64,000 bases of DNA. Origin: Lepas anatifera (Eukaryota; Arthropoda; Thecostraca; Lepadidae). The stretch's first letter is position 1. Every line of letters starts with the position of its first letter. The notes below the pieces were generated by a model. The model saw only the letters and a list, made by a program, of their open reading frames with translations, made no database searches and was not told the origin of the DNA. The position numbers were made by a program, and so were the translations under genes. Positions 16,812 through 63,933 of this stretch are shown here, piece after piece. The DNA is taken from the NCBI GenBank assembly GCA_034440635.1, contig JAOTON010001690.1:1-64000 (forward strand), in the 5' to 3' direction.

Positions 16812-19800
16812 TTACTTGTGCTTGCCGTAGAACTTGTTGTTGAGTAGGAAGATGAGCAGATTGACGTTGATGCGGACGCGACCGAACATGTTCATCACGG
16901 AGACGCCGTCATACTGCAGCTGCAACAGCTCCTGTCGGCCACAGAGTGTCAGACGGCTCAGCTGACAGACACAGGCGCGCCACCGCCGGGTCAGGCAGCA
17001 CAGCTGACAGACACAGGCGCGCCACCGCCGGGTCAGGCAGCTCAGCAAACAGGTACAGGGGTGCCACCGCCGGGTCAGACGGCCCATCTGACGGACACAG
17101 GGGTGCCACCGCCGGGTCAGGCGGCTCATCTGACAGGCACAGGGGCGCCAACACCGGGTCAGACACTTCAGCTGACAGGCACAGGCGCGCCACCGCTGGT
17201 CACAGAGTGTCAGACGGCTCATCTAGTACAGTTCCGGCACGCGACCGTTATTTAACAAACGTGTAGTGCAGTGAGCCAGCCCGCAGGCCTCATTCTCGGA
17301 CAGAACACTGTGGCTTACCTGGAGGCTGATCTCGACCCGCTCCAGCTGCACGCCCAGCAGCTTGGCGTTGACCTGGAACACGCCCTGGGCGGCCAGCGGC
17401 GAGATCTCGAACTGCACGCCCTTCAGCTGAGAACACAGAGCGAGGCAAGTGAGAAACCCACCACAGCTGCCGCTGCAGGCGTTCCGCAATTGTGAGGCTT
17501 CGAGGACTTCTTCTTGGAAGACAAATGTTCCAACTGGACTGAGGAAGGAACCAACACGATGAAAGAAATGTCTGGCAAGTCAATTCACCGACCACATATA
17601 CAAAAACGAAATTTTTGTAGCTGACTGAAAAAAGCGAAGCGATGACGTTTTAAGGTCAATTCCAGGTAAGTTCGTCCACTTCTGTAAATATACCAAGTGT
17701 GTGTACAGGTCTCTCAAAGCAGAGTCGTACTTGTGACATCAGAGGTCCGCAGCACGGGTGCACCCTGCCGACTACCACGCGGCTGCGGCGTGCTCACCTC
17801 CCCGGCTGCATGCCCTCGATGCCGAGCAGGACGCCCTTCTCCTTGAGCCGGGCGGCGGTGTACCGCAGTGGCGCCACCTTGGCGGCCGGCTTGTGGCGCC
17901 GCCCGGCAGCCATACCCTGCGGACAGGGGGCAGCCCGACTGAGCGGTGCTGACTTATCACACCAGATCAGCTGCGCAAGGACCGCTTCACGTAATTATCG
18001 GACCGATGGTGTTATTTTGTTTTCGAACGCTTATCACTTTACAGCGAACTGCATGTTAAATTATCAAACCGGCGACTTGGAACTCTGCGTTTATTTCATT
18101 TCTAAAGCCCTAGCACCGGTAAAAATTGCAAGGCTGTCGCTATCCTTGGGTTCTATCTGCCCAAAAAAAAGCGCGTGGCGAGCTGACCTGGAGGCAGGTG
18201 GCTAGGTACTGGGTGTAGTAGCGTGCCTGTTCCTGGTGGTGGGCGCGCTTCTGATCCAGCTCAGAGAGAGTGCGGCGCAGTTTCACCAGCTCCTGCAGAA
18301 CAGGCCCAAGGTCAAGTCGGAGACGACGCGTCAGAAACGGCGGCATCAGGGACGCGATCGCAGTCAAATCCAGGCTCCGCCCGCTTAGCGTGTAGATCTA
18401 TCTGTAACAGCTATGTCTGGAGTGCCGACCTGCCTGTGTGGCTCCTGTGCTCAGGGTGACCTGCCTGTGTCGCTACTGTGCTCGGAGTGAGCTGCCTGTG
18501 TTGCTTCTGTGATCAGAGTTTTGGTCTGCCAGTGTTGTTACTATAACCAGAGTGCTGGCCTGCCTGTATTGCTACTATGTTCAGAGTGAGTAGCCTATGT
18601 TGCTACTGTGCCCAGAGTGCTGATCTGCCTTTGTCGCTACTGTGCCCAGAGTGACCTGTCTGTGTGGCTACTCCCTACCTTATTTGTTACTGCGCCCAGA
18701 GTGCTGATCAGCGTACAAGGCCGCTGTGTACCGTGCAGGTATGAATAGCCAGCGGAGCTGACCTGTCTGCGCTGCTGGCGGCGCCGCTTCTGGTGCAGTA
18801 TATCGGCGGCCACGGCCTCCAGCAGGGCGCGGTAGTTGTCCTCCCGCTCCACACGGCCGGCCCGCTCCAGCAGGCGCAGCCGCTCCAGCAGCGCGTCCTT
18901 GGCCTCCTCCAGGGTGGCGCTGCGGCACGGCGCACCGTACTGATATCAATACCAAAGGGGACCGGGACAGCGCAGTTCTGATGCCGAGATGACGAGACTG
19001 GGACAGCGTGCTGATATCGATATGAGAGGGGTGACTGGGGCAGCGCGGTGCCGACACCGATCTGAGAGGGGACTGGGACAGCGCGGTACCGGCACCGATA
19101 TGAGAGAGGAAAAGGACAGCCCTGGATACAGAAGGAAAGATTGAGCCAAAGCTGGATATGGGTGGCGGTCACCTCGTCAACAGCGTTTAATTAATTATCA
19201 TGCCTCAGTTCATCAACACATGCTGGTAAGTTGTATTCATCGAATCGGAAATCTTAATATAGTCGGGTATCCATTAATCAGTAGTACGACACCGCCGGGG
19301 TTACAAACAAGCATTACTGACGGGTGGGGGTGCCGCCACTGACCAGGGCTGGGCCAGGAAGGAGTTGTTGCGGTGCATGAGCTGGTGTCCGCGGCGGCGT
19401 CGCTCGGTGTCTCCGCGTGCCTGCAGCAGCTGGCGGTAGCCGCGCTCCTGCAGCGCCGTCGGCTCCACACGCGCGCAGGCGCTGACGTCCGTGTCCTCCG
19501 TGCAGCGCATCACGTCCACCAGCAGCTGCTTACACCTGGCCGGCCGGGCGGGGGCTCGGACGTCAGCCGGCTCGTGTACGGGACAACACGGGACGGCAAC
19601 AGGAGGCCTCGGCACGCATCCAGCGAAACAGCGAGTATTTTTTAGTCCTCCCGGCAATGTGGCTCAAAAATAAAACATTGCTATAGTTTATCTGATCTAA
19701 GAACAACCCTTCACCCAAAGTCCAAAGGCTAAAAAAACGTGGATTTTTCTCCTCAGATTGTTGTTTACTTAGTTTAGTCAAGAAAAGGAAAAACAGAACT

Positions 19801-63933: not shown

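What the first reader, a model, noticed from the sequence alone, without database searches (positions are those of the whole stretch)
16932..62683. Minisatellites that grow out of exon-intron junctions throughout one gene
At least eleven tandem arrays in the IQGAP gene start at, or within a few tens of bases of, a splice site: donors of exons 3, 6, 10, 20, 24 and 27, and acceptors of exons 4, 12, 14, 19, 27 and 31. In exons 3, 4, 6, 14, 19, 24 and 27 (donor) the repeat unit itself contains the splice site, with up to about 24 nt of exon in some. Unit lengths differ (22 to 50 bp) and sequences are unrelated, so one transposed satellite cannot explain it; each array was seeded locally. A repeated local process at splice junctions, or selection that tolerates or favours decoy sites, is implied. 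I know of no named system like this.
Basis: partly seen in the sequence, partly recalled or inferred. Interest (0 to 1): 0.88.

Follow-up and report, generated by a model that had tools for sequence, protein, structure and literature searches.

The report
Splice-site minisatellites in barnacle genes
In a barnacle, short stretches of DNA straddling exon-intron borders have been copied over and over into the introns; a similar oddity was described in amphioxus under the name 'mirages', so this looks like a second, unrelated animal lineage with it rather than a new kind of system.

Summary
The window carries the IQGAP gene of a barnacle-like animal (nearest protein Pollicipes pollicipes, 82%). 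Of 16 tandem arrays in its introns, 11 end within 36 bp of a splice junction. In six the repeat unit contains the junction; a seventh is bracketed by a decayed copy of its exon end. Copying is tied to junctions: 14 of 173 exonic 40-mers touching one recur in the adjacent intron, against 2 of 165 and 0 of 142 deeper in the exon (IQGAP plus myosin loci). A second, probably allelic contig differs in length at 8 of 14 arrays compared and lacks one 90-bp junction-spanning duplication. A junction-directed process is not required: 100-bp duplications at random in introns capped at 400 bp predict 7.5 junction-spanning births, and 7 are seen; shorter segments or longer introns leave an excess. Best reading: neutral junction-spanning tandem duplication, tolerated because the exon-proximal splice site stays in use (inferred; no RNA data).

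The parts
16815..63922 (-). IQGAP gene body: first modelled coding exon 63922-63843, last coding exon 16931-16815
62518..62699 (-). A1: 37-bp unit, 4.9 copies; unit contains exon 3 end and donor (CTTCTCAG|GTGGGGTAAC)
61810..61865 (-). A2: 26-bp unit, 2.2 copies at exon 4 acceptor; a larger copy of acceptor plus exon start lies at 61956-62017
58745..59757 (-). A3: 26-bp unit, 38 copies (66 in C214), unit contains CCAG|GTSGGA donor of exon 6
47877..48603 (-). A4: 24-bp (91-bp higher-order) array starting 8-30 bp after exon 12 donor
47781..47842 (-). decayed copy of exon 12 end plus donor region at the far edge of A4 (score 44; 300 null draws reach 23); coordinates worked out
42459..43655 (-). 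A5: two related 22-bp arrays ending 25-35 bp upstream of exon 14 acceptor
39162..41457 (-). A6: 46/50-bp unit, about 48 copies (29 in C214); unit contains acceptor of exon 17 (TTGGCAG|GCGGTGGT)
41514..41540 (-). copy of exon 17 acceptor junction at the far edge of A6; coordinates worked out
35459..36121 (-). A7: 26-bp array plus 90-bp duplication spanning exon 22 acceptor (with 60-75 exonic nt); the 90-bp copy is absent from C214
36112..36140 (-). decayed copy of exon 22 start at the far edge of A7; coordinates worked out
34495..34580 (-). A8: 27-bp unit, 3.2 copies, starts 12-15 bp after exon 23 donor
26475..27919 (-). A9: 35/33-bp units; unit contains 26 nt of exon 27 end and its donor (CAACCACG|GTATGTAGC)
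18956..19120 (-). A12: 38-bp array 36 bp upstream of exon 30 acceptor
18420..18672 (-). A13: 31-bp array, 90 bp from exon 30 donor; marginal junction-like copy
16948..17202 (-). A14: 42-bp array 16 bp upstream of last acceptor (exon 35); acceptor-proximal intron sequence seems to recur at the far end by eye
22257..22484 (.). A11: 112-bp unit, 2 copies, not at a junction (counter-example)
29722..29770 (.). A10: 24-25-bp unit, 2 copies, not at a junction (counter-example)
44165..44210 (.). A15: weak 8-bp array, not at a junction (counter-example)
56802..56869 (.). A16: weak 11/16-bp array, not at a junction (counter-example)

Best explanation
These are junction-derived minisatellites of the 'mirage' kind. 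Step 1 (one polymorphic case seen, direction of change inferred): a segment of tens of bp to about 100 bp straddling a donor or acceptor is tandemly duplicated, so a second junction with a scrap of exon lies inside the intron. Step 2 (inferred): it is tolerated because the splice site next to the exon body is still used, leaving the mRNA unchanged; a duplication at a donor buries the copy downstream, one at an acceptor buries it upstream. Step 3 (length change between haplotypes seen, mechanism inferred): the array, or a sub-unit between the two junction copies, expands and contracts by slippage or unequal exchange while buried copies decay. Short introns make junction-spanning events a large share of all intronic duplications, so no junction-seeking machinery is needed. 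The arrays have no evident function.
For: The exon is the template: copied pieces encode conserved protein (exon 3 GKAVFS, exon 27 PSLDG, compared with P0064, P0026 and P0027; and at myosin loci GESGSGKT in L051 and ETIRISAAGYPSR in L053, whose conservation is recalled). Copying is confined to the junction: 14 of 173 exonic 40-mers at 0-40 nt recur in the adjacent intron, 2 of 165 at 40-80 nt, 0 of 142 at 80-120 nt, 1% expected. Far edges of A2, A4, A6 and A7 carry junction copies (4 of 11 arrays at p = 0.003; A5 p = 0.043 and A14 p = 0.050 borderline); only A4 adds a case beyond the six whose unit holds the junction. The 90-bp acceptor duplication is in one contig only, with identical flanks. 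8 of the 14 arrays compared (A3, A4, A5, A6, A7, A9, A13, A14) differ in length between the contigs. Random birth fits for segments of 100 bp in introns capped at 400 or 600 bp (7.5 or 6.3 expected, 7 seen). Introns without arrays are 203-582 bp in 14 of 17 cases.
Against: In the seven other settings tried, random birth predicts 2.3-5.3 junction-spanning cases among 16 arrays (P for 7 or more 0.0005-0.25), and the excess of edges within 40 bp keeps p = 0.04 at cap 400 (0.17 at cap 300). Four of the 11 near-junction arrays (A5, A8, A12, A14) show no clear exon-containing copy. In the far-edge test 5 of 11 arrays were negative. Use of the exon-proximal site is not shown; in some arrays many decoys score as high as the real site. 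That C214 is the allele and not a recent paralogue is inferred from colinearity and identity.
Confidence: 0.62

Rival explanations
1. A junction-directed birth process: transcription- or splicing-linked lesions (for example R-loops or nascent-RNA-associated breaks at exon ends) make tandem duplications start at splice sites more often than elsewhere in introns.
For: Arrays are denser inside this gene than in the flanks of either contig (12 arrays in 47 kb against 10 in 74 kb; 19 in 67 kb against 4 in 52 kb), though genes in the flanks were not annotated.
Against: Fits random birth under plausible segment and intron lengths. Base coverage by repeats is not higher at junctions. The array-edge test at myosin loci is weak.
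Confidence: 0.2
2. Remnants of intron gain by tandem duplication of exonic AGGT segments: the arrays mark young introns.
For: The amphioxus globin authors proposed mirages as a route to new introns; tandem genomic duplication is described as a demonstrated intron-gain mechanism (passages of PMC3443670).
Against: Intron 5' ends do not resemble downstream exon starts, nor 3' ends upstream exon ends: 1 of 58 comparisons passes the 95th percentile of random pairs. Where exon sequence is copied, it is that of the exon on the array's own side.
Confidence: 0.06
3. Selected decoy sites: repeated splice sites regulate IQGAP splicing or protein diversity.
For: Of 11 arrays scored with a home-made matrix, 8 hold sites scoring at least as high as the real one (A5 72, A6 48, A3 46, A9 18, A2 4, A1 3, A12 2, A14 2). 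The upstream copy of the exon 22 acceptor would add 30 codons in frame without a stop.
Against: A4, A7 and A8 hold no site as strong as the real one. None of the six arrays over 300 bp (A3, A4, A5, A6, A7, A9) keeps its length between the contigs. Units differ from intron to intron.
Confidence: 0.04
4. A mobile or dispersed satellite inserted repeatedly near exons.
For: Some dispersed repeats exist in the window.
Against: Units mostly unrelated between introns; A9 and the searched part of A6 found only at this locus and C214; units contain local exon sequence.
Confidence: 0.02

Closest known systems
'Mirages' of amphioxus (Adh3, globins BflGb6/BflGb9, PGBD5, troponin C)
   Same: Minisatellite-like tandem duplications spanning exon-intron borders, at 5' and 3' borders, unit lengths from 10-72 bp (Adh3) to about 160 bp (globins), unequal copy number between haplotypes (passages of PMC3087553 and PMC3902484; the Adh3 paper itself, PMC117041, is not held).
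   Different: Barnacle, not cephalochordate; about eleven junctions of a single gene; arrays up to 2.3 kb and 48 copies; sub-units expanded between two junction copies in A4 and A7. The globin paper reports RT-PCR suggesting normal splicing; no RNA is available here.
Intron gain by tandem genomic duplication (AGGT model)
   Same: Starts from a tandem duplication that carries splice-site sequence.
   Different: Here existing introns are lengthened; no new intron is indicated.
Ordinary intronic minisatellites/VNTRs
   Same: Tandem units (22-112 bp in the 14 main arrays), length polymorphism between haplotypes.
   Different: Edges concentrated at splice junctions, with exon sequence in the unit of several.

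Membership tests
mirages | tandem repeats whose unit spans an exon-intron border | tested here: met
   6 of 16 IQGAP arrays; at myosin loci L032, L035, L051 and L053 the unit contains the modelled junction, and at L038 and L046 after I re-placed the border by eye
mirages | both 5' and 3' borders affected | tested here: met
   donors 3, 6, 27; acceptors 4, 17, 22
mirages | copy number differs between haplotypes | tested here: met
   8 of 14 arrays, assuming C214 is the allele
mirages | normal splicing despite the repeats | not testable with these tools
   no RNA data
mirages | somatic instability (reported for Adh3) | not testable with these tools
   needs reads or tissue PCR
mirages | common descent with the amphioxus arrays | not tested
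   not expected: units are copied from local exons; likeness is of structure and process
intron gain by tandem genomic duplication | intron 5' end resembles downstream exon start, or 3' end the upstream exon end | tested here: not met
   1 of 58 comparisons above the 95th percentile

The most novel reading that the evidence does not exclude
Barnacle genes carry a genome-wide, ongoing process that seeds minisatellites preferentially at splice junctions, driven by a transcription- or splicing-linked lesion. It would have arisen independently of the amphioxus mirages and would steadily create alternative splice sites and in-frame exon extensions, such as the possible 30-codon one at exon 22 in one haplotype.
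Probability: 0.2. Interest if true: 0.8.

Novelty: new member of a known kind. Interest (0 to 1): 0.5.

Why it matters
The mirage reports I saw come from one chordate lineage, amphioxus. Finding such arrays in an arthropod, in IQGAP and at several myosin loci of the same genome, suggests that junction-spanning tandem duplication may be a general and overlooked way in which introns grow and decoy splice sites arise. A pair of contigs that differ by exactly one such duplication makes the birth step directly testable, and the density of decoys makes barnacles a natural test of how the spliceosome picks the exon-proximal site.

Tried and rejected
Organism: I first suspected amphioxus because of the mirage literature; the IQGAP searches pointed to a barnacle. 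Species not identified.

Barrier idea (arrays grow until they hit the exon): rejected by reasoning, because expansion adds units inside the array and does not consume flanks; I therefore used collapsed-intron nulls.

Rows left out: searches used 14 arrays; two weak TRF rows inside the gene (44165-44210; 56802-56869) were added, which I ran when checking this report. It weakens the cap-400 excess from p = 0.013 to 0.04. AT microsatellites are left out throughout.

Haplotype comparison: lengths judged from TRF extents and intron lengths. A2 and A10 were not called by TRF in C214 although their introns are equal in length or nearly so; A12 extents differ but the intron does not. I count none of these three as different. 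The two weak arrays were not compared.

Base-coverage profile did not show enrichment at junctions.

Myosin array-edge test: 7 of 24 arrays at or over a junction against 3.5 expected (p = 0.02); one of the 7 (L037, overlap 91 nt) lies outside the overlap limit given to the null, so the fair count is 6 (p not recomputed). At 20, 40 and 60 bp p is 0.09, 0.08 and 0.03. It used 27 of 30 loci: left out L025 (long single-exon match) and L030, L031 (exon model nearly the same as L029). In some searches the exon calls behind L037 and L046 are doubtful and two hits (L029, L032 donor 1755) barely pass the threshold; without the two doubtful junctions it is 7 of 113 instead of 9 of 115. The first myosin run used the wrong strand for 20 of 30 loci and was discarded.

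Clathrin heavy chain was located but its DNA could not be fetched.

Paper searches: 10, some with capped listings (10 of 1,952, 15 of 181). Among the titles and abstracts listed I saw no arthropod report of splice-junction minisatellites; the amphioxus globin paper came up in four (7, 10, 11, 29) and PGBD5 in three (7, 11, 77). Word searches inside two barnacle genome papers (PMC8917513, PMC8270832) found no 'minisatellite' or 'tandem repeat'. An earthworm metallothionein paper (passages) has a first-intron minisatellite; the passages say nothing of junction origin.

Full report
What is there. The window holds an IQGAP gene on the minus strand. A stitched exon query found IQGAPs, among them one from a barnacle, Pollicipes pollicipes (P0027). 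A 743-aa C-terminal query matches P0027 at 82% over its whole length; other full-length hits lie near 47% or below, and one unnamed 429-aa fragment reaches 75% over 55% of the query. The genome (G000) has 1.04 Gb in 2126 contigs. I read it as a barnacle; the species is not known. A spliced alignment to the minus strand gave 35 exons, of which I dropped five weak or tiny ones, leaving 30 exons and 29 introns. The stretch between exons 6 and 10 probably hides an exon or two.

The arrays. TRF, merged, gives 14 minisatellites in introns, plus two weak rows added later. Eleven of the 16 end within 36 bp of a splice junction, five at donors (exons 3, 6, 12, 23, 27) and six at acceptors. A wrap-around alignment of each unit shows that six arrays run over the junction into the exon: donors 3 (24 nt), 6 (3), 27 (26); acceptors 4 (2), 17 (8), 22 (75). 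The rows show it by eye, for example CCGTCTTCTCAG|GTGGGGTAACGGG repeated down intron 3. Five arrays (A10, A11, A13, A15, A16) are not at a junction by this measure; A13 has a marginal junction-like copy.

More than chance? Against random placement in the same intron, 11 of 16 within 40 bp compares with 4.1 expected. Since array growth lengthens the intron, I also collapsed each array to two units: 4.3 expected with actual introns, 6.0 with introns capped at 600 bp (p = 0.006), 7.2 at 400 (p = 0.04), 8.7 at 300 (p = 0.17) (with 14 arrays one search gave 4.3, 5.7, 6.7, 8.0). At a limit of 0 bp there is no clear excess (4 seen; 1.7-4.4 expected). So the concentration of edges is real, but how surprising it is depends on how short the introns were when the arrays were born. 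By bases covered, repeats are not denser near junctions.

Origin from the junction. Exonic 40-mers touching a junction recur in the adjacent intron in 5 of 58 cases for IQGAP and 9 of 115 for myosin loci; the next 40 nt in 1 of 58 and 1 of 107; the next in 0 of 42 and 0 of 100; chance is 1%. Two of the nine myosin cases rest on doubtful exon calls and two barely pass. Thus copying is tied to the junction and rarely reaches beyond about 80 nt into the exon. Where an array now seems purely intronic, its far edge may still tell: A4 ends in a decayed 62-nt copy of the exon 12 end and donor (score 44; 300 null draws reach 23). A2, A6 and A7 also end in junction copies (4 of 11 at p = 0.003); A5 (p = 0.043) and A14 (p = 0.050) are borderline with short matches; A1, A3, A8, A9 and A12 are negative. 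The copied exon pieces encode conserved protein, so the exon is the source.

Live change. Contig C214 is colinear with the window, mostly at 96-98.7% outside the arrays; 20 paired exons average 98.1%. I take it as the other haplotype. Eight of the 14 arrays compared differ in length, e.g. A3 38 against 66 copies, A6 48 against 29, A9 1442 against 1595 bp. At exon 22 the window haplotype has an extra 90-bp copy spanning the acceptor with exon sequence, while C214 has one copy with the same flanks. Whether this is a gain in one or a loss in the other cannot be told. If the upstream acceptor were used it would add 30 codons in frame without a stop; by my matrix it scores below the real one.

Elsewhere in the genome. 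A search for myosin heads gave 79 matches, 30 of them fetched as loci of about 3.2 kb, one 4.9 kb. After turning minus-strand loci, units that contain the junction were seen at L032 (42 exonic nt), L035, L051 (P-loop exon) and L053 (40 exonic nt); at L038 and L046 likewise after I re-placed the border by eye. The array-edge test on 24 arrays in 27 of the 30 loci was weak (7 at or over a junction against 3.5 expected, p = 0.02, or 6 on a fair count; p 0.03-0.09 at wider limits). So the habit is not confined to IQGAP, but these are one gene and one family, not a genome-wide survey.

Mechanism. I favour neutral tandem duplication. A duplication over a donor gives exon-E|N-E|N; if the first site is used the mRNA is unchanged; the mirror holds for acceptors. 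Such events are then as harmless as purely intronic ones and in short introns make up a large share. For segments of 100 bp in introns capped at 400 bp, 7.5 of 16 births should span a junction; I count 7 (six by unit plus A4). For segments of unit size in actual introns only 2.3 are expected (P = 0.0005) (for 14 arrays 6.7 and 2.3). Neutrality is therefore sufficient under plausible settings, not proven; a birth bias is my main rival. Intron gain is disfavoured: 1 of 58 end-to-exon comparisons passes the 95th percentile. Decoys are abundant in some arrays and absent in others by a simple home-made matrix, and their use is unknown.

Relation to the known. [quoted passage not shown]). The barnacle arrays meet the three structural features I could test; splicing and somatic instability could not be tested. 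I take them as a new case of that kind in an unrelated lineage. The listings of my ten paper searches showed no arthropod report, but the library is partial and the Adh3 paper is not held.

Checking note.

Noticed in passing
window 53871-54839 +: Open reading frame of 323 aa with a rhodopsin-family 7tm_1 domain (E = 4e-45) on the opposite strand inside an IQGAP intron; it looks like an opsin (recalled motif), nested and apparently intronless.
   Followed up: partly
window 30965-31132 -: Exon 25 has four A's where the C214 haplotype has five, shifting the frame just before the donor GGC|GTACGT; sequencing error or a real allele difference.
   Followed up: partly
C214 about 20187-33404 (L013, L012) and C214 59224-65068 (L009, L007): The second haplotype carries about 13 kb more in the intron between exons 6 and 10 and about 3 kb more between exons 24 and 26, so long introns here are partly recent.
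   Followed up: no
window 6531-6765 and 7082-7134: Interstitial GTTAG (TTAGG-type, the usual arthropod telomere unit, recalled) arrays of 47 and 11 copies, the first partly GTTTG.
   Followed up: no
window 45419-45830 and 56910-57322 (distant copies near 954 and 1437): Dispersed repeat, about 90% alike between the two gene copies, probably a transposable element.
   Followed up: no
window 15205-15423 +: Trm112p-like match.
   Followed up: no
C1586 and C214 flanks: Minisatellites (period 15 or more, score 80 or more) are denser within the IQGAP gene than in the flanks of both contigs; genes in the flanks were not annotated.
   Followed up: partly
L025: A myosin-head match in one open frame of 675 aa with no intron within it, unlike the other myosin loci fetched.
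   Followed up: no
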